From: an uncultured Microcaldota archaeon
GTDB lineage: Archaea; Micrarchaeota; Micrarchaeia; Norongarragalinales; CAINOH01
Direction of reading: 5' to 3'
Assembly (NCBI GenBank): GCA_903851445.1
Contig: CAINOH010000009.1
Location: 325,784-389,783, forward strand
DNA length: 64,000 nucleotides
Shown here piece by piece: positions 3,637 through 46,807 of the stretch. The notes beneath the pieces are model-generated. The model saw only the letters and a program-made list of their open reading frames with translations. It was not told the origin of the DNA and ran no database searches. Position 1 is the stretch's first letter. The number at the start of each line of letters is the position of its first letter. The position numbers and the translations under genes were made by a program.

Positions 3637-3717
3637 TTATGACTACATTTTCAGAATATTTAAATATTGTGGTCATAATGTCTACAAATACTATTATAGC
3701 TTAAACTGTAGTCATAA
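3637..3717 (-). promoter_or_regulatory. fic promoter with repeated TTATGACTAC operator
   Basis: An AT-rich TATA element (around 3655-3668) sits about 25 nt before the fic ATG. It is bracketed by an inverted repeat: TTATGACTAC at 3637-3646 and GTGGTCATAA at 3669-3678 (one mismatch). Another copy, GTAGTCATAA, lies at 3708-3717. A protein bound to these sites would cover the TATA box and the start codon, so repression is the likely outcome. The regulator is unknown. Confidence 0.6.
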
Positions 3718-3823
3718 GCAAAGGAAAAACACAGTCATACGCGCGCCTGTCTTTGCTCGTGTATCTTTCGTCGCTTTCGGCTTTCGCTTTTTGCCCTTTT
3801 TTTCGCGAGTCCAATTCCCTGTT

Positions 3824-3930
3824 TTCTCGAGCTATGCTTTTATTGCCCTTCCCCCTTCGGGGTCGCGTGTCCCCAGTCCCCTTTTGGGTCCTAGGGTCCC
3901 CTCGCTAAGGGCATAAAAGCCGCTCGAGAA
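3824..3930. repeat. Long inverted repeat with GC-rich loop and TATA box
   Basis: The left arm (3824-3850) and right arm (3907-3930) are nearly exact reverse complements: TTCTCGAGC, then GCTTTTAT, then GCCCTT, with small bulges. The 56-nt loop holds further C/G runs that can pair locally. The right arm contains ATAAAAG about 27 nt before the ATG at 3943 and so probably serves as the TATA box. The left arm carries the mirror-image TATA. The structure could be a regulatory hairpin, a divergent promoter or an element end. Confidence 0.6.
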
Positions 3931-3942
3931 TAACGGGGCCCT

Positions 3943-5502
3943 ATGGACTCGCTGTTTGGTTTGGGCAAAAAGCTTCGCCTGAGAGCTCTATCTTCGGGTA
4001 GTGTTCGTGTTGGGCGCTTGTGTTGGCGTTTGACTTTTCGCAAGGGCGTGTGGCGCAGGTGGTGGTTGGTGGTTTTGTGGCCGTATTCGTTGGCGTATTT
4101 TTGGTTGACGAGGGATGCTCTTGGGGCTGTTGCTCGTTTGGAGCGTCCTGTTTTTGGTGTTGCGCGCGTTCGGTTGGGCAGCGAGTTCAATTCTCATTTT
4201 CTCGTGGCTGGCATGAGCGGTGCTGGGAAGAGCAGTTTTTGCAAGGCGCTTGCTGTGGAGTTGTCGCGGGCGGGCAAGAGCGTGTGCGTGTTGGATGTGA
4301 ATGGCGAGTATGCTGATTGCGTGCGTTCTGTTGGCGGCCGGGTTTATGCGACTGGGAGTGTTGGTATCAGTTTGTGGGAGTTGGATGGCTGTTCGCCTGT
4401 TGACCGGAGTGCGGAGAATTGCGGGATTTTGCGTAGAGTATTGGGTTTGGGTGATGTGCAGGCGATTTTTCTTTCGCGGGTTGTGGCCGCGGCTTACAAG
4501 GCGAAGGGCATCCGTGAGGAGGACAGGGCTTCCTGGGGTCGTGAGCCACCGGTGATGGCGGATTTGTTGCGTGCGTGTGATGCTTTGTATGCGCAGCGGA
4601 AGGATGAGAGTCTTGCGGGTTTGCGTCGCCGTTTGGAGGGTTTGGCTGCGACGCGCGTTTTCGGCTCGAAGACGGTGTTGCCTTTGTCGAGCGTGGCTTG
4701 CGGGGCGGTGTGTTTTGACTTGTCTTTCTTGCGGTCGCGTGATTCGCAGGCGTTGTTCGTGGAGCTTTTCTTGCGGCGCTTGAACTCTTACTTGGAGTCG
4801 CAGAAGGGTGCGAACGGGGTGTTCGTTTTTTTGGATGAGGCGCAGGCGTTGTGCAGGCCTTGCGCCGGCGAACCCAGTTTTGTGGGCGAGGTGATGCGCA
4901 TGGGCCGCAAGTACGGGTTTTCGTTGGTGGTGTCGTCGCAGTCGCTTTCCGGCTTGGATTCTGCTGTAGTGTCCAATGCTGGCGTGCCGGTGTTGTTCCA
5001 GTTGCGCGGCGCTGGTGACGTTGAGGCCGGCTCGCGGCTGCTATCGGGCCGTGGTTTTTCGGAGAAGTCCGGGTTTATTGAGCACGAGCTTTCGGTGTTG
5101 GGCAAGTTCGAGTTCCTCTCGCGGTTGAATTGCGGCCGTGACGTGTGCAAGGTCAGCTTCAAACCGCCCTGTTTTCCCGTTGGCAATGGGTTTGCCTTTG
5201 ATTCGGAGAACCAGCGTCTTGCTTACCAGAGTTTCCGCGAGCTCTTGCCAAGCGAGGAGATGCGCTATTGCGACAAGTCCGTGCTCGGCGGTTTGGAGTT
5301 GGACTTCGTGTTCCCGAAGCGCAAGGCCGCTGTTGAGTGGAACGGGACATATTTTCACTCGCTGCCCGGCCGGGCCGAGAAGGATGAACGCAAGAAGGGT
5401 TTGTTGGAGCGGATGGGTTGGAGGTTGTTTACCGTGGAGGATGATGGCATGGCTCCTGAGGCAGTGCAGCAGGCAGTGTCAAATGTTGCGAGGGAACTGT
5501 GA
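3943..5502 (+). CDS. Membrane-anchored coupling-protein-like ATPase fused to a Vsr/DUF559-like nuclease domain
   Basis: The protein has 519 residues. A hydrophobic segment at about residues 40-60 suggests a membrane anchor. Walker A (GMSGAGKSS) is near residue 90 and Walker B (VFVFLDEAQ) near 293, as in VirD4/HerA-type DNA pumps. The C-terminal part (about 450-510) has LDFVFP, then AVEWNGTYFH, then a Lys/Arg-rich helix and a VEDDG end. That order matches the small Vsr/DUF559 class of PD-(D/E)XK nucleases. A membrane-bound translocase carrying a nuclease could act in DNA transfer or in cutting incoming DNA. The pairing with the VirB4-like gene at 231 favours a conjugation-like apparatus, but which role applies is inference. 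Confidence 0.75.
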   Translation: MDSLFGLGKKLRLRALSSGSVRVGRLCWRLTFRKGVWRRWWLVVLWPYSLAYFWLTRDALGAVARLERPVFGVARVRLGSEFNSHFLVAGMSGAGKSSFCKALAVELSRAGKSVCVLDVNGEYADCVRSVGGRVYATGSVGISLWELDGCSPVDRSAENCGILRRVLGLGDVQAIFLSRVVAAAYKAKGIREEDRASWGREPPVMADLLRACDALYAQRKDESLAGLRRRLEGLAATRVFGSKTVLPLSSVACGAVCFDLSFLRSRDSQALFVELFLRRLNSYLESQKGANGVFVFLDEAQALCRPCAGEPSFVGEVMRMGRKYGFSLVVSSQSLSGLDSAVVSNAGVPVLFQLRGAGDVEAGSRLLSGRGFSEKSGFIEHELSVLGKFEFLSRLNCGRDVCKVSFKPPCFPVGNGFAFDSENQRLAYQSFRELLPSEEMRYCDKSVLGGLELDFVFPKRKAAVEWNGTYFHSLPGRAEKDERKKGLLERMGWRLFTVEDDGMAPEAVQQAVSNVAREL

Positions 5503-5533
5503 TTGCTTGGATGGAGTAATCGGCTTCTGGCGT

Positions 5534-5556
5534 TCAGCGGAAATGCGGTCCCGAAA
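5534..5556 (+). repeat. Intergenic CGGAAAYGC motif, copy 1 (before vapB)
   Basis: TCAGCGGAAATGCGGTCCC followed by GAAA lies between the ATPase/nuclease gene and the vapBC promoter, in the same orientation as vapB. Related copies occur at 6323, 7035, 7507, 10659, 11058, 31345 and 31944. Confidence 0.6.
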
Positions 5557-5614
5557 GGCACCTATCCCTTACTGGTTTGATTAATCCTGGCCTTTCCCGC
5601 AAAGGTTAAAACCA

Positions 5615-5630
5615 TATATGTATACATATA
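5615..5630 (+). promoter_or_regulatory. vapBC promoter with perfect 16-nt palindrome
   Basis: TATATGTATACATATA is its own reverse complement and ends only 5 nt before the vapB ATG. It includes TATA-like sequence. An overlapping palindromic operator is what one expects for an auto-repressed toxin-antitoxin operon. Confidence 0.6.
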
Positions 5631-5634
5631 CTAT

Positions 5635-5862
5635 ATGACAAAGTTGGTGTCCTTGAGCAACGAAGCATATTTCCTCCTTTCAAAGCGCAAGCTTGAAGGC
5701 GATTCATTCTCAACCGTTGTAGTGCGGCTTGTTGGCAAGGACCAGAGTGGCATACTGGCGCTTGCCGGTGCGTTGAAGGGCGAGTCCAAGGCCCTTGAGA
5801 AGATGAAGGCCGACATCTATGAAAACCGCAGGACTGCCAAGTTGCGGTCGTTTCCCCTGTGA
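5635..5862 (+). CDS. vapB: VapB-type antitoxin
   Basis: This 75-residue protein begins with a short DNA-binding-like strand (TKLVSLSNEAYFLL) and SFSTVVVRL, the pattern of archaeal VapB antitoxins (DUF217 type), and has a charged C-terminal tail that would wrap the toxin. It normally neutralises the VapC RNase and represses its own operon. The stop codon lies just before the vapC ATG, so the two are co-translated. A palindrome overlaps the promoter. Confidence 0.85.
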   Translation: MTKLVSLSNEAYFLLSKRKLEGDSFSTVVVRLVGKDQSGILALAGALKGESKALEKMKADIYENRRTAKLRSFPL

Positions 5863-5867
5863 TTTTG

Positions 5868-6257
5868 ATGGTCTGCCTTGACTCCGACGTGATGATAGAC
5901 TACTTGCGAGACAAAGAATATGCCGTCCGCTTTGTCAATGACCGGCTTGCAACTGGCAGCCGCCTTTCTACGACCGTTATGAGCGTCTGCGAGCTTTACA
6001 AAGGCTCGGACCAACGCCTGCCAAAAGGCAGGTCCGAAGTTGACCGTTTCCTCGGTTTTCTTGAAATATACGACCTTGACATGCGAGCATGCCTGCTTTT
6101 CCGCGAGTGCCACCGGACGCTTTCCGCAAAGGGCCTGGCCATTGGCGACTTTGACATCCTGATTGCAAGCATCGCCATGGCGCACGGCGAGAGCCTGGCA
6201 ACTGGGAACGCAAAGCACTTTGCACGCGTGCCCGGGTTGAGAATTGAGAAAGTCTAG
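5868..6257 (+). CDS. vapC: VapC toxin, PIN-domain RNase
   Basis: The PIN domain shows the expected acidic residues: LDSDVMIDYL at the N-terminus, a central CELYKG, and IGDFDILIASIA near residue 100. These form the Mg-dependent RNase site of VapC toxins, which usually cut tRNA or rRNA. ATG 5868 is preferred over GTG 5859 because it sits after a GTGATTT ribosome-binding site. The last 17 codons lie in an 84-bp sequence that is repeated at 7515-7598. Confidence 0.92.
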   Translation: MVCLDSDVMIDYLRDKEYAVRFVNDRLATGSRLSTTVMSVCELYKGSDQRLPKGRSEVDRFLGFLEIYDLDMRACLLFRECHRTLSAKGLAIGDFDILIASIAMAHGESLATGNAKHFARVPGLRIEKV

Positions 6258-6290
6258 CATCATTCTGATTCTTTTCACGCAATCGTGTGC
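6207..6290. repeat. 84-bp direct repeat, copy 1
   Basis: This copy covers the last 17 codons of vapC and continues into sequence matching the 3' end of the MFS gene. It differs from copy 2 (7515-7598) at 4 of 84 positions. The two copies flank about 1.2 kb with a toxin-antitoxin pair and one unknown gene. Confidence 0.9.
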
Positions 6291-6322
6291 GCTTTTTTCC
6301 TAGTGAAAAATCAACTTTTAGT

Positions 6323-6344
6323 TAACGGAAATGCGGTCCCGAAA
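6323..6344 (+). repeat. Intergenic CGGAAAYGC motif, copy 2
   Basis: TAACGGAAATGCGGTCCC followed by GAAA lies upstream of the RHH antitoxin promoter, in the gene's orientation. It matches the copy at 5534 closely across the GGTCCCGAAA extension. Confidence 0.6.
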
Positions 6345-6451
6345 ACCCGTTATCCTCTTTCTTTCATCTTTCCTTTATGGATGAGGGAAACTTTCAGCAA
6401 TCCGGCGAAGAGCCTTCGGAAAAGCCATTAAATAGTGGTTTGACTACTAGA

Positions 6452-6718
6452 ATGACTATGAAAACCACTATTGCAGTGTCTGGCTTTCCTGACTTGGTGC
6501 TGTCAAGGGCTGTTGAGGCGGGGATAGCGCGCTCCAAGACCGATGCAATCCGTCTTGGCATACTTGCGCTCAATTCGCAGTACGGCCTTGTAAACAACGC
6601 AGAGGACGAGCTTGTGGCAGCCAAGATTCTCAGAGTCGAGGCGAAGAACCGCAAGCTTGGCAGGAAACCAGAAACTTTGCAGGAAGTTTTGAAAAAGTAC
6701 CCTCACCTGAAAGGATGA
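6452..6718 (+). CDS. Ribbon-helix-helix antitoxin-like protein
   Basis: Translation from ATG 6452 or 6458 gives about 87-89 residues. TTIAVSGFPDLVLSRAVEAG followed by SKTDAIRLGILAL is a ribbon-helix-helix DNA-binding pattern. The longer ORF from 6377 is less likely because a TATA box (about 6427-6436) lies 20-25 nt before 6452 and would give a leaderless mRNA. AGTGGTTT at 6434 and AAAACCACT at 6461 form an inverted repeat over the start, a likely operator. The RelE/ParE-like gene follows 27 nt downstream, so this is probably its antitoxin. Confidence 0.75.
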   Translation: MTMKTTIAVSGFPDLVLSRAVEAGIARSKTDAIRLGILALNSQYGLVNNAEDELVAAKILRVEAKNRKLGRKPETLQEVLKKYPHLKG

Positions 6719-6745
6719 TTTTCCTGTCGGCTGGGTGGATTGTTT

Positions 6746-7021
6746 TTGGAACTGTCGAAAGATTACGAACTGACTTTCGAGCCTAATTGGAATCGGCATT
6801 TGCTCAAATTCGACAAGACGCGCCAGGAAACAATCTTTCGGAAAATCCTTTCGCTCCAGACTGCAGTTTGCGGACGCCATCTTCGCCACGGCTTTCCTTT
6901 TTTCGTGGCAGAAGTCGGCGGATGCCGGATTGTCTATCGGTCGGATGACTTTTCCAGAACTCGGAAAATAGTCTTTGTCGGCGACCACAAGCAATACGAA
7001 AAGTGGTACGGGACGAGATGA
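6746..7021 (+). CDS. RelE/ParE-family toxin
   Basis: The 91-residue protein has the RelE/ParE layout: an N-terminal helix pair (RHLLKFDKTRQETIFRKIL), LRHGFPFFVAEVGGCRIVYR in the sheet, and a C-terminal KIVFVGDHKQYEKWY. The family consists of ribosome-dependent mRNA nucleases or gyrase poisons. There is no ATG. TTG 6746 is chosen because GGTG at 6734 stands 8 nt upstream, as in other genes here; TTG 6740 is possible. The gene follows its presumed RHH antitoxin. Confidence 0.75.
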   Translation: MELSKDYELTFEPNWNRHLLKFDKTRQETIFRKILSLQTAVCGRHLRHGFPFFVAEVGGCRIVYRSDDFSRTRKIVFVGDHKQYEKWYGTR

Positions 7022-7034
7022 ATTCTTGCCAATG

Positions 7035-7051
7035 CAAGCGCGGTCCCGAAA
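7035..7051 (+). repeat. Partial CGGAAAYGC-type motif, copy 3
   Basis: CAAGCGCGGTCCCGAAA retains the GCGGTCCCGAAA half of the motif. It lies just after the RelE-like stop and before the TATA box of the next gene. Confidence 0.45.
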
Positions 7052-7116
7052 CCGCCCGCAGTTTCACCGCCCTTTCGCCTTGCAGGTTAAAAAAACTCAG
7101 TCTGCAAAGGATTAGC

Positions 7117-7506
7117 ATGAGCCCTGCAGACGTCGCGCCAAAAAAAGGCGCGCCTTCCATAAGCCCGGCGTTCTTTTCGGAGCTCCGCAGGAGGGACTTT
7201 CACGTGCAGGCAGTCCGTGATAAGGGCGGCAACGGCTACACCATCAACCCCCTTGAGCGCAGGAACGTAAGGGCGCTCCTTAAGGCCAACGGGATTGAAC
7301 GTTTCAGCAAGGGCGTGCGCTTTGTCCTTTCAAAGGAAGGAACTGGTCTTCCGGAGGCTTTCCAGAGGCTTCCCCTCAAGCTCGCCGGCGAGTCCACGGG
7401 CCCGGAGGGCTTCCTGCGCAAGCTTGGCGACCTGCACGGAGCGGAAGTGACTTTCAGGCTTCCCGACAACCGCATCGTGATAGTGCCCAAGCGGCCCAAC
7501 CCCTAG
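7117..7506 (+). CDS. Hypothetical protein in the duplicated-junction insert
   Basis: The start is set at ATG 7117 because a TATA-like GTTAAAAAAAC (about 7086-7096) lies some 25 nt upstream. The 129-residue product is basic and includes GGNGYTINPLERRNVRALLKANG and a C-terminal strand-rich end (RLPDNRIVIVPKRP). I do not recognise the family. It lies between the RelE-like toxin and the second 84-bp repeat, so it belongs to the inserted segment. Confidence 0.6.
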   Translation: MSPADVAPKKGAPSISPAFFSELRRRDFHVQAVRDKGGNGYTINPLERRNVRALLKANGIERFSKGVRFVLSKEGTGLPEAFQRLPLKLAGESTGPEGFLRKLGDLHGAEVTFRLPDNRIVIVPKRPNP

Positions 7507-7519
7507 TCAGCGGAAACGC
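7507..7519 (+). repeat. CGGAAAYGC motif, copy 4, at an insertion junction
   Basis: TCAGCGGAAACGC starts right after the stop of the 7117 gene. The second 84-bp repeat begins inside it at 7515. The motif therefore coincides with a recombination junction. Confidence 0.55.
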
Positions 7520-7598
7520 AAAGCACTTTAGCCGCGTGCCCGGGTTGAGAATTGAGAAAGTCTAGCATCATTCTGATTCTTTTCACGCAATCGCGTGC
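7515..7598. repeat. 84-bp direct repeat, copy 2
   Basis: This copy consists of a non-functional vapC 3'-end remnant fused to the true 3' end of the MFS gene (stop at 7583). It is 80/84 identical to 6207-6290. Confidence 0.9.
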
Positions 7599-8998
7599 TG
7601 CCTCTCTTCCTTTCCCCTTGTTGCCGAGAGCCAGCCCGCAATCAAGAGCATGATTAGCGACAGGAACAGTGCGGCTTTAAGCCCTCCGAGGAACGCTTCC
7701 GGCAGGTTGCCTACGAGGTTGGAGTTTCCAAGGAAGATTCCGAACGCGACCTGCCTTGGGATTGCGATTGACGCTGCTGTAATCGCAAGCACGTAGCTTC
7801 CAAGGGTGCCGAGGTTGGAAAGGGTGCGCAGCAGGCCTGAGGTTGAGCCGTGCCTGTCCTGCACCGCTGCTGCCATTACTGCGCTGACGTTAGCCGGCCA
7901 GAACATCGACGCGCCCACTCCTGCAAACAGCGACGCTATTACTATCTCGTAAAGCGGAGTGTCCACTCCAAGCGACAGGTAAATCAGCACCGTTGTTGCC
8001 ATCAGGCCTATGCCTATGGTGGCTATCACCCTCGCGCCGTACCTGTCCGAAAGCGAGCCCATCTTGGGCGAAAGCACCGCGCTTACCAGGTACCCTGGAA
8101 GCAACAGCAGGGCCGCGTCAAGCGGGTCCAAACCCCTTAACCCCTGCAGGTACAAAGTCATCACAAAGGACACCGACAGGTAGCCGAGCGCCTGGAAGAA
8201 CGCGGCTAAAAGCGACGAGCGCAGCACGCCCTTCTTGAAAGCCGCCACGTCCAGCATCGGCTGCTTCTGTCGCGACTCCCACCAAAAGAATACCGGCAAC
8301 AGGGCCGCGCCAGCTGCAAGCAGGATTGCGTTGTCTGCATTTGCGCCCATTCCCGCAAAGTCAACCAGTCCGAGCGCCAAAAGCCCCAGGGACGCTGCAA
8401 GCAAAAGCATTCCAACAAGGTCAAAGGACTGCCTTGGCGCCGGGTTGTCCTTTGGAAGGTAGTGCCAGCCTGCAATGAACGCGGCTATCCCGATTGGCAC
8501 GTTGAGCCAGAAGATGAACCTCCAGCCCGCAAAAGTCGTAATTATCCCGCCCAGCACGATGCCCAGCACCGCGCCCACGTTCCAGCCGATCCCGGTAAAG
8601 CCGAACGCTCTTCCTCTTCTTGACTTTTCGAACGTGTCAGCCACAATCGCGCCCGAATTCGCCTCAAGCAAAGAACCGCCTATTGCCTGAACCGCCCTAG
8701 CCGCTATCAGGAAAAGAATGTCCGGCGCCAACCCGCACAAAGCCGAGCCGATCGTGAACACCGCAAAGCCCGCGTTGAACATCTTGCTCCTGCCAAGGAT
8801 GTCCCCAAGCCTTCCAAGCTGGGTAGTTGCAACGGCCACGATGAAAAGGTAGACCAGGATTGTCCAGATTGAAAGCGAAAGCGTCGCACCCAGCGCCTTG
8901 GTAATGTCGGGCAAAGCGAGGATGATTATGGTTGTATCCAGCGCTCCCATCACGATGCCCAGCACGATTATTGCGAGGATTTTGTTCTCATCTTTCAT
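7583..8998 (-). CDS. MFS drug exporter, DHA2 (14-TM) family
   Basis: This 471-residue membrane protein starts with the DHA2 signature (GALDTTIIILALPDI), followed by QLGRLGDILGRSKMF in the first cytoplasmic loop (motif A) and GxGxxxGP-like segments in TM5 (GIGWNVGAVLGIVLGG). About 14 hydrophobic segments are visible. Such proteins export hydrophobic drugs using the proton gradient. The gene is convergent with vapC, and its last codons lie in the 84-bp repeat. Confidence 0.9.
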   Translation of the reverse strand: MKDENKILAIIVLGIVMGALDTTIIILALPDITKALGATLSLSIWTILVYLFIVAVATTQLGRLGDILGRSKMFNAGFAVFTIGSALCGLAPDILFLIAARAVQAIGGSLLEANSGAIVADTFEKSRRGRAFGFTGIGWNVGAVLGIVLGGIITTFAGWRFIFWLNVPIGIAAFIAGWHYLPKDNPAPRQSFDLVGMLLLAASLGLLALGLVDFAGMGANADNAILLAAGAALLPVFFWWESRQKQPMLDVAAFKKGVLRSSLLAAFFQALGYLSVSFVMTLYLQGLRGLDPLDAALLLLPGYLVSAVLSPKMGSLSDRYGARVIATIGIGLMATTVLIYLSLGVDTPLYEIVIASLFAGVGASMFWPANVSAVMAAAVQDRHGSTSGLLRTLSNLGTLGSYVLAITAASIAIPRQVAFGIFLGNSNLVGNLPEAFLGGLKAALFLSLIMLLIAGWLSATRGKEERQHAIA

Positions 8999-25801: not shown

Positions 25802-26413
25802 CTATTTTCCGAGGTACCAAAGCTTGTCGCGATTTTTTTCGTAGTGCCGGCACTTCTTGTTTTCCAAGTTGGTGTACCTGCTTGCCGGAGGCTGGCCGTT
25901 GGAGACGCTCATGCACAAGTTGTCTATTTCCTTAGGACTGTCCAGGAACTCCCTTATCCAACCTTGATAGAACAATGTCGGCGGCTCGAACTTGCTTTCC
26001 CTGTGATAGCCATATGCCTGTTCGATTATGAAAAGTTGGGCCAGAACCGCTATTGTTTTCAGCGAGTTGAGGTAAAGCGGGAACTTTTCCTTTCGAAGCT
26101 TGGATATTGCCTTTTCCGGCGATTCACCGTAAAAAATGTCGTCAAATGCGAGAAGAAGGGCTTCCTTCAGGTCCGGCCTTGAGCGAATCCGCAGGTTCAG
26201 GTCAAGAAAGACCCGTAGGTGGTTCGGCCGGAACTTGCGCTCGCCGTCCTTGAGCCAAATCTGGAAGTTCTTCTTCTTGTCGTAAGTCTTGAACCTGCTT
26301 GAAAGCACCGACGGCCTCAGGATATAGACTTCGACGCCGCCCGTAACGTCAACCGTTGTTTCCTTGTCAAACGGCAACTTCTTAACTCGCTTGAACATTT
26401 CAGCATATTTCAT
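25802..26413 (-). CDS. Hypothetical protein beside the Dam-type methylase
   Basis: The 203-residue, basic protein is convergent with the zinc-ribbon gene. A central acidic region (ALLLAFDDIFYGESPEKAI) and FQIWLKDGERKF are visible. I do not recognise it. Position suggests a restriction endonuclease partner of the methylase, which is only inference. Confidence 0.55.
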   Translation of the reverse strand: MKYAEMFKRVKKLPFDKETTVDVTGGVEVYILRPSVLSSRFKTYDKKKNFQIWLKDGERKFRPNHLRVFLDLNLRIRSRPDLKEALLLAFDDIFYGESPEKAISKLRKEKFPLYLNSLKTIAVLAQLFIIEQAYGYHRESKFEPPTLFYQGWIREFLDSPKEIDNLCMSVSNGQPPASRYTNLENKKCRHYEKNRDKLWYLGK

Positions 26414-45505: not shown

Positions 45506-46807
45506 TTATTTTTTCCACTTGACCTTTAGGAAATGAGTCGCGCAGCTCATGCACGGGTCGTACGCCCGAACCAGTTTTTCCATCTCGTGCACGATGTAGT
45601 CCTTTTCCTTTCCAACGTCGATTTGCTGCTGCACCTGTTCAGCCAAGTCCTTTTCTATGCGGACCTGGTTCTGTCCGGTGGGTATGGCCAGGTTTATGTT
45701 CTGCACCTTGCCGTCGCGGATGTTCACGTTGTAATAAAGCACTCCGCGCGGTGCCTCGACTACGGCGAATCCTGCGCCATCCTTTCTTGTGGGTTGAACC
45801 GGGGCTTCCGGCTTGAAATCGTAAGACTGGAGCACATCTATTGACTGGTTGATCGAGTCTATAGTCTCGATTGCCTGCGCGAGGTTGTTGTCATAGATGT
45901 TCTTCGACGGGAATTTTCCGAGTTGCTTTGCGCAGTCCTTCTGCGTCTGCCTGTGCAAGAATTTCTTTCCAAGGTTCAGCCGCGCCATCGAGCCCACCAT
46001 GTAGTCCTTGCCCTGCAAAAGGAACGCGGATGCGGTTGAGTAGTCGTGCCAAATCCTCTGCGCGTACTGGCCGAAGTGCTGCTCCGGAATCTTCAGCCCG
46101 TCAGAGGAGAGCAGGTCTCCTGAAAGGTAGTCGAAGTTGGGTCCGACCATCCCCACGTAAGTGGTCTTGTGTTCGAACTTCCACGAGCAGTCATAAAAGA
46201 CGTCGAGAAGCTCTAGCGAGTGCTCGCGTGCGTGCTCGAGCTGGTGGATGATGTCCGGGTATTTTGCCTTGTCCGGAACCTGCGTAAAGCCGCCGAGAAC
46301 GGGCCACGGCGCGTGGATTGAGCGTCCGGCAACCATCTTTGAAAGGTTGTTCCCAGCTGCCTTGATTTCAAGAGCAGTTGCGATGATTTTCTTCTCTTCA
46401 GTCGAGGTGAACTCGAACACTGAGCCCTTGTTGAACATGTCCGGAAGCACGAAGAAATACAAGTGGAGCGGGTGGTCGCGGATAAGGTGCGCCCACATCG
46501 AGAGCCTTCTCTGCTTCATAGTCTGCTCGGAAGGAACCAGTCCAACAGCGTCCTCTATGGACTTGGTGCAGGCGAAGATGTGCGACATCGAGCACGTTCC
46601 GCAGATTCGCGAGACCAGCTGCGCGATTGCCTGCATCGGCTTTCCGCGCACAGCCTGCGTGTAGAAACGCTTGCTTTCCGGAATCTTGAGCTTTGCATAC
46701 TCGACCTTTCCTTTCGTGACCTTGACTTCCAGGTCGGCGTGGCCTTCGACCTTGCTTAAGCCCTCAAGCCCAAGCTCCAAATTCTCGGAATCGTTGCCGC
46801 CGTGCAT
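45506..46807 (-). CDS. [NiFe] hydrogenase large subunit
   Basis: The 433-residue protein carries both nickel-binding motifs: RICGTCSMSH (about 67) and DPCMSCATH near the C-terminus, with all four cysteines. Only eight residues follow the final His, so either a very short tail is removed or none. The sequence resembles soluble group 3 enzymes. The small-subunit stop is directly before its ATG (TGAATG), so the two are co-translated. Confidence 0.95.
   Translation of the reverse strand: MHGGNDSENLELGLEGLSKVEGHADLEVKVTKGKVEYAKLKIPESKRFYTQAVRGKPMQAIAQLVSRICGTCSMSHIFACTKSIEDAVGLVPSEQTMKQRRLSMWAHLIRDHPLHLYFFVLPDMFNKGSVFEFTSTEEKKIIATALEIKAAGNNLSKMVAGRSIHAPWPVLGGFTQVPDKAKYPDIIHQLEHAREHSLELLDVFYDCSWKFEHKTTYVGMVGPNFDYLSGDLLSSDGLKIPEQHFGQYAQRIWHDYSTASAFLLQGKDYMVGSMARLNLGKKFLHRQTQKDCAKQLGKFPSKNIYDNNLAQAIETIDSINQSIDVLQSYDFKPEAPVQPTRKDGAGFAVVEAPRGVLYYNVNIRDGKVQNINLAIPTGQNQVRIEKDLAEQVQQQIDVGKEKDYIVHEMEKLVRAYDPCMSCATHFLKVKWKK

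What the first reader, a model, noticed from the sequence alone, without database searches (positions are those of the whole stretch)
6207..7598. 84-bp duplication of a convergent vapC/MFS junction flanking a toxin-antitoxin insert
Positions 6207-6290 and 7515-7598 match at 80 of 84 bases. The first copy is the true vapC end plus an MFS-gene-end remnant; the second is a vapC remnant plus the true MFS end. The original state was therefore vapC directly convergent with the MFS gene, and about 1.2 kb carrying an RHH/RelE-like pair and an unknown gene entered between them. No transposase or integrase is present. Integration of a circle by recombination through a shared junction, or by a recombinase acting in trans, would give this layout.
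Basis: partly seen in the sequence, partly recalled or inferred. Interest (0 to 1): 0.7.

Follow-up and report, generated by a model that had tools for sequence, protein, structure and literature searches.

The report
Displaced gene end flanking toxin genes
In an uncultured archaeon, a small toxin-antitoxin segment appears to have slipped in behind another toxin gene and left a second copy of that gene's last 84 bases on its far side, an insertion scar that recurs around other toxin modules in related archaea, although no mobility enzyme was found in it.

Summary
The repeat is real: 6207-6290 and 7515-7598 match at 80 of 84 bases, with no third copy in the 1.09-Mb Micrarchaeota assembly. Copy 1 is the genuine vapC end. 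Copy 2 is an in-frame vapC C-terminus with its own stop (NAKHFSRVPGLRIEKV*) fused to the convergent MFS gene. The 1,221 bp between them hold an antitoxin/RelE-like pair and an orphan ORF, with no recombinase.

New here: the left edge of copy 2 cuts a lineage-specific promoter motif (TCAGCGGAAAYGC) at shared AACGC, a microhomology-type junction. The layout also recurs. In a same-order genome a gene's 3' end is repeated, in frame and differing mostly at third codon positions, behind each of two toxin-like cassettes. In this genome, two tRNA-anchored arrays of Fic and PIN/AbrB cassettes carry displaced tRNA 3' ends.

Best reading: 3'-end displacement by an incoming toxin-antitoxin segment, most likely homology-facilitated illegitimate recombination. 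A trans-acting recombinase or a template-switch duplication is not excluded. Modest interest for this locus, more for the recurring pattern.

The parts
5535..5559 (+). promoter-associated motif E1 (CAGCGGAAATGCGGTCCCGAAAGGC) upstream of vapBC
5635..5862 (+). vapB antitoxin (Pfam VAPB_antitox)
   Evidence: E=1.6e-11
5859..6257 (+). vapC PIN-domain toxin; its last codons and stop lie in copy 1
   Evidence: PIN 1.8e-8; VapC; solved VapC homologues
6207..6290 (+). repeat copy 1: true vapC 3' end plus 33 bp downstream
6276..6298 (+). weak terminator-like hairpin (6276-6289) followed by T6 just outside the repeat
   Evidence: hairpin count is at chance level in the scan, T6 within 60 nt of a stop in 97 of 804 genes
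6306..6344 (+). motif E2 with 20-bp upstream extension; 33 bp shared at 94% with two toxin-module promoters on contig C4
6377..6718 (+). antitoxin-like ORF (start probably 6458); paralogues at C15, C3 and C24
   Evidence: no significant Pfam match
6740..7021 (+). RelE/ParE/HigB-like toxin ORF, relatives in 79 of 295 genomes of the class
7031..7051 (+). motif E3 upstream of the orphan ORF
7117..7506 (+). orphan 129-aa ORF, no relative in 295 genomes of the class
7507..7519 (+). truncated promoter motif E4 (TCAGCGGAAACGC) fused to the vapC tail; shared AACGC at the join
   Evidence: the 13-mer occurs 3 times in the genome, the two others in promoters
7515..7598 (+). repeat copy 2: displaced in-frame vapC 3' end plus the end of the MFS gene
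7583..8998 (-). MFS efflux-type transporter, convergent

Best explanation
This is a 3'-end displacement scar. An earlier vapBC module ended directly against the convergent MFS gene. A segment carrying an antitoxin/RelE-like pair and an orphan ORF then entered at the vapC 3' end, together with a vapC 3' end of its own. The new end became the functional vapC terminus (copy 1), and the old end was pushed 1.3 kb downstream, where it remains as an in-frame but headless tail beside MFS (copy 2). The most likely route is homology-facilitated illegitimate recombination: incoming DNA paired with the resident vapBC on the left and was joined on the right by microhomology, its promoter motif (GGAAACGC) to the resident vapC end (GGGAACGC). 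Shown: the repeat, the fusion point, the reading frames, the lack of a recombinase in the insert, and the recurrence of the layout. Inferred: polarity, foreign origin and mechanism. The donor would have had to share the 33 bp after vapC.
For: Copy 2 is an intact in-frame VapC C-terminus with its own stop, differing by one A-to-S codon that changed at all three bases, as between diverged alleles rather than decay. The left edge of copy 2 is a promoter motif cut at shared AACGC: TCAGCGGAAACGC occurs three times in the genome, the other two upstream of genes. The same layout occurs independently in G008:C8, where the 3' end of gene 112632-113084 is repeated at 114010 and 115098 behind two cassettes, in frame, with differences biased to third codon positions (15 of 32 and 18 of 30). 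Of four non-tandem intergenic local repeat families in this genome, three enclose TA or Fic modules (rough Monte Carlo P 1e-5 for all four, 9e-4 leaving the window out). The model is published for toxin-immunity arrays in Vibrio (PMC5361080).
Against: No uninserted vapC-MFS junction or donor was found. The donor would need the same 33 bp after vapC, including the five codons that now end MFS, so an earlier event in the donor lineage is required. A weak vapC terminator (hairpin plus T6) spans the right edge of copy 1, as if the sequence to its right were native to vapC. The microhomology is only 5 bp exact. The enrichment around TA modules was noticed after the fact and some TA positions were found while examining those loci.
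Confidence: 0.48

Rival explanations
1. A small non-autonomous integrative cassette: a recombinase supplied in trans inserted the segment at an attachment site in the vapC 3' end, as elements do at tRNA 3' ends. The 84-bp copies are attL and attR.
For: Gene-end restoration plus a displaced remnant is the integrative-element signature. The same genome has tRNA-Leu and tRNA-Asp anchored arrays of Fic and PIN/AbrB cassettes with displaced tRNA 3' ends and no integrase inside. One XerA-like recombinase is present in the genome.
Against: The window repeat contains no tRNA sequence and shows no similarity to those att-like repeats that survives correction (best p 0.01 in 24 comparisons). It lacks an obvious core with arm repeats. 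Its left edge is a promoter half-site. The recombinase scores 89 bits against the XerA model, below its cut-off of 220, and no link to this locus was shown.
Confidence: 0.2
2. Template switching or a templated patch in one chromosome. Either a stalled fork copied 1.2 kb from elsewhere and returned 84 bp upstream, or a break next to the orphan ORF was filled with 84 bp copied from the vapC tail.
For: Microhomology at the left edge (AACGC), with GTGC at the right edge, and single-base mismatches just outside them; both copies otherwise near identical. The terminator-like T-run adjoining copy 1 suits copy 1 being the original.
Against: Needs a donor or lost gene not seen; does not explain recurrence behind TA cassettes or the coding-type divergence of the analogous tails.
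Confidence: 0.2
3. Remnant of a second vapBC module. The array was vapBC, RelE pair, orphan ORF, second vapBC; a deletion from the promoter motif E4 to the second vapC tail removed the rest.
For: E4 has the same sequence class as E1, the motif in front of vapBC, and a deletion between GGAAACGC and GGGAACGC would give the junction.
Against: Requires a recent duplication of the whole vapBC and a later deletion; no other vapBC residue is detectable upstream of 7512.
Confidence: 0.07
4. Assembly chimera of strain variants in a metagenome-assembled genome.
For: Assembly is 81% complete, in 25 contigs, and read data are not available.
Against: The repeat has only a 61-bp exact core, lies inside a 452-kb contig, and the coding frames are coherent on both sides.
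Confidence: 0.04

Closest known systems
Toxin-immunity module displacement by homology-facilitated illegitimate recombination (Vibrio T6SS arrays, PMC5361080; also proposed there for Rhs orphan 3' ends)
   Same: Homologous anchor on one side, non-homologous join on the other, displaced 3' end or partner left downstream, arrays built stepwise
   Different: Here type II toxin-antitoxin cassettes in an archaeon; only one displaced tail at this locus; the donor is unknown
Integrative elements at tRNA or gene 3' ends in archaea (PMC4158269, PMC3718332)
   Same: Gene end restored by one copy of a direct repeat, the second copy at the far end; vapBC cargo is common
   Different: About 1.2 kb, no integrase gene or fragment, no tRNA sequence or recognisable att core in the window repeat
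Gene transposition with flanking direct repeats (Arabidopsis, PMC2869330)
   Same: Flanking repeats over 30 bp, often genic, often present at the orthologous unoccupied site; the circle model is proposed there
   Different: Eukaryote; parental and unoccupied sites were available there, not here
Integron gene cassettes, including archaeal integrons with TA cassettes (PMC9668308)
   Same: Small TA cassettes in arrays separated by repeated sites
   Different: No IntI, no attC-like site at the window locus; repeats are locus-specific

Membership tests
Homology-facilitated illegitimate recombination scar | one join at microhomology | tested here: met
   AACGC shared (7 of 8 over GGxAACGC) between motif E4 and vapC at the left edge of copy 2
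Homology-facilitated illegitimate recombination scar | homologous anchor between donor and recipient on the other side | not testable with these tools
   no donor or recipient haplotype in the collections
Homology-facilitated illegitimate recombination scar | displaced resident gene end keeps the frame of a once functional gene | tested here: met
   NAKHFSRVPGLRIEKV* in copy 2; same in G008
Integrative element (tyrosine recombinase type) | direct repeats restoring a gene 3' end | tested here: met
Integrative element (tyrosine recombinase type) | integrase gene or fragment in the element | tested here: not met
   only one recombinase found in the genome, on contig C23
Integrative element (tyrosine recombinase type) | excised circle | not testable with these tools
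   no reads
Insertion sequence or transposon | terminal inverted repeats and a short target duplication | tested here: not met
   no inverted repeat pair at the ends; the duplication is 84 bp
Integron cassette | IntI and attC sites | tested here: not met
   no integron integrase above cut-off; the repeat contains vapC coding sequence and only a 5-bp hairpin

The most novel reading that the evidence does not exclude
Micrarchaeota carry a cassette system of about 1-kb toxin-antitoxin or Fic modules that insert repeatedly at the 3' ends of tRNA and protein genes, each bringing a replacement gene end and displacing the old one, mobilised by a recombinase in trans; the window locus is one protein-gene site of that system.
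Probability: 0.13. Interest if true: 0.72.

Novelty: new member of a known kind. Interest (0 to 1): 0.36.

Why it matters
How small toxin-antitoxin modules spread without a mobility gene is unsettled. A duplicated, in-frame gene end marks an insertion event and suggests its polarity within one genome. Finding the same mark at a second protein gene and at tRNA genes in these archaea gives a concrete footprint that can be searched for genome-wide and tested in strains or reads.

Tried and rejected
Motif CGGAAATGCGGTCCCGAAA as a cassette recombination site: rejected as such, because weaker forms sit about 15 nt before TATA-like boxes of unrelated genes across the genome, so it reads as a promoter element; it is absent before most related TA pairs in other genomes. 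Shared 11-mer TCTAGCATCAT between the window repeat and the tRNA-Leu array: another copy lies inside a coding gene and the alignment is not significant after correction. MFS C-terminus as evidence of polarity: variable in relatives, uninformative. Fold of the orphan ORF: pLDDT 41, useless. Mobile-element records: no relatives of the orphan ORF or the RelE family in viral contigs, no exact repeat core there, one distant VapC in a phage record. Paralogue of the insert at C24 104 kb: chance matches. Empty site for the G008 loci: its congeners give no syntenic match, only a 36% homologue in a different context.

Full report
Observation. The window lies in contig C9 of a 1.09-Mb assembly, 81% complete; the nearest named relatives by the MFS protein include Micrarchaeota. 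Positions 6207-6290 and 7515-7598 agree at 80 of 84 bases with a 61-bp exact core; the full pair is 87 nt at 94%. No third copy exists in the assembly (the stretches fetched for read as N for small contigs under 2.2 kb), and the only other hit in a 301-genome phylum sample is a 33-bp marginal match. Copy 1 completes vapC (VAPB_antitox and PIN matches; VapC models; solved tRNA-endonuclease VapC structures). Copy 2 gives NAKHFSRVPGLRIEKV and a stop in frame, then runs into the convergent MFS gene.

The insert. Between the copies lie 1,221 bp: an antitoxin-like ORF, a RelE-like toxin ORF and an orphan. The toxin belongs to a family with relatives in 79 of 295 genomes of the class, a conserved HK-x-YEKWY-type C-terminus, weak ParE/HigB matches and a marginal match to a solved toxin-like protein. 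The orphan (7117-7506) has no relative in the class sample. No transposase, integrase or inverted repeat pair is present.

Edges. A motif CAGCGGAAAYGCGGTC precedes vapBC, the RelE pair and, in a weaker form, the orphan. Genome-wide it is a promoter-associated motif: its strongest copies precede toxin modules, and weaker ones sit before TATA-like boxes of unrelated genes. The exact form TCAGCGGAAACGC occurs three times: in two promoters and at 7507-7519, directly after the orphan's stop and fused to the vapC tail. The fusion falls on AACGC, shared by the motif and by vapC. So the left edge of copy 2 joins a cut promoter to a gene end, which suits an illegitimate microhomology join better than a conservative crossover. 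The right edge is less informative: a weak hairpin and T6 span it.

Recurrence. I put the fetched stretches of the archaeal genome together and listed direct repeats of at least 45 bp within 5 kb. Apart from tandem or coding repeats, four families remained: the window; C14:24459/26086, next to tRNA-Thr, bracketing a transglutaminase-like gene; C23:64545/65702/66767, bracketing two Fic genes; and C3:46924/47744 with a third copy at 45838, bracketing a Fic gene and a PIN/AbrB module. The C3 copies carry the tRNA-Leu 3' end CTCCCCCTGCAT, and the C23 copies the tRNA-Asp end CGGTCAAGGCGC, each array lying downstream of that tRNA. GTCTAGAC occurs at four places in the whole genome: after tRNA-Asp and in the three C23 repeats. 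These look like displaced tRNA ends, as left by integrative elements. About 1.2 Mb from three relatives gave four intergenic or gene-end cases: G006:C1:899/1695 around an antitoxin/ParE unit, G008:C8:163871/166160 starting inside a tRNA around AbrB/PIN, G008:C8:112974 and its copies, and G056:369540, a fragment of an ordinary gene.

The closest analogue is G008:C8. A 150-aa gene (112632-113084) is followed by a first cassette (RHH protein plus a PIN-like protein assigned by eye), then a 3'-end copy at 114010, a second cassette (HTH protein plus a PIN-like protein assigned by eye), then another copy at 115098. Both displaced ends read in frame to a stop, with differences concentrated at third codon positions (15 of 32, 18 of 30). 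They were probably functional ends once. In the window the single codon difference, GCA to AGC, changes all three bases for a conservative Ala/Ser swap, which fits a diverged allele rather than random decay.

Strength of the pattern. Placing the four own-genome spans at random encloses a whole TA or Fic module in three of four with P about 1e-5, or two of the three others with P about 9e-4 leaving out the window. This is a rough, after-the-fact test, and some modules were found while looking at these loci. The window repeat does not resemble the tRNA-type repeats significantly, so one shared recombinase is not demonstrated.

Mechanism. Homology-facilitated illegitimate recombination explains the diverged tails, the lack of a recombinase and the microhomology join, and has been proposed for toxin-immunity arrays in Vibrio. 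Recombinase action in trans and template switching remain open. Circle integration through flanking repeats has been proposed for plant genes but presupposes the bracketed structure. No empty allele was found, so polarity and mechanism remain inferences.

Noticed in passing
L098 (C3:40001-54763), 5838-8710: tRNA-Leu-anchored array: two PIN-type modules (one with AbrB) and a Fic gene separated by three copies of a repeat holding the tRNA-Leu 3' end and AGACTCTAG motifs; no integrase. A related repeat end lies at C2:721.
   Followed up: partly
L089 (C23:60001-80000), 3663-6845: tRNA-Asp followed by a DUF3795 gene and two Fic genes, with displaced tRNA-Asp 3' ends between units; GTCTAGAC occurs only here (four places) in the genome.
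   Followed up: partly
genome-wide, contigs of G000: CTAG is about five-fold depleted (0.80 per kb against 3.84 expected) but recurs in the tRNA-linked repeats.
   Followed up: partly
window 5535, 6323, 7031, 7507 and about 15 other sites in G000: Promoter-associated motif TCAGCGGAAAYGCGG upstream of TATA-like boxes, strongest before toxin modules of different families; mostly not seen before related modules in other genomes.
   Followed up: partly
G008:C8 6406, 8783, 23518, 76116; G006:C1 168158: Several tRNA genes have a second copy of their last 17-22 bases 70-150 bp downstream, never upstream (6 hits against 0 for exact 12-mers, one of them 5.3 kb away).
   Followed up: no
window 3943-5502: HerA-like ATPase with a C-terminal DUF559/MTES-type nuclease domain directly upstream of vapBC, a possible defence gene.
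   Followed up: no
C14:24459-24535 and 26086-26164: 79-bp direct repeat (94%) starting 3 bp after tRNA-Thr and bracketing a transglutaminase-like zinc-ribbon protein.
   Followed up: partly
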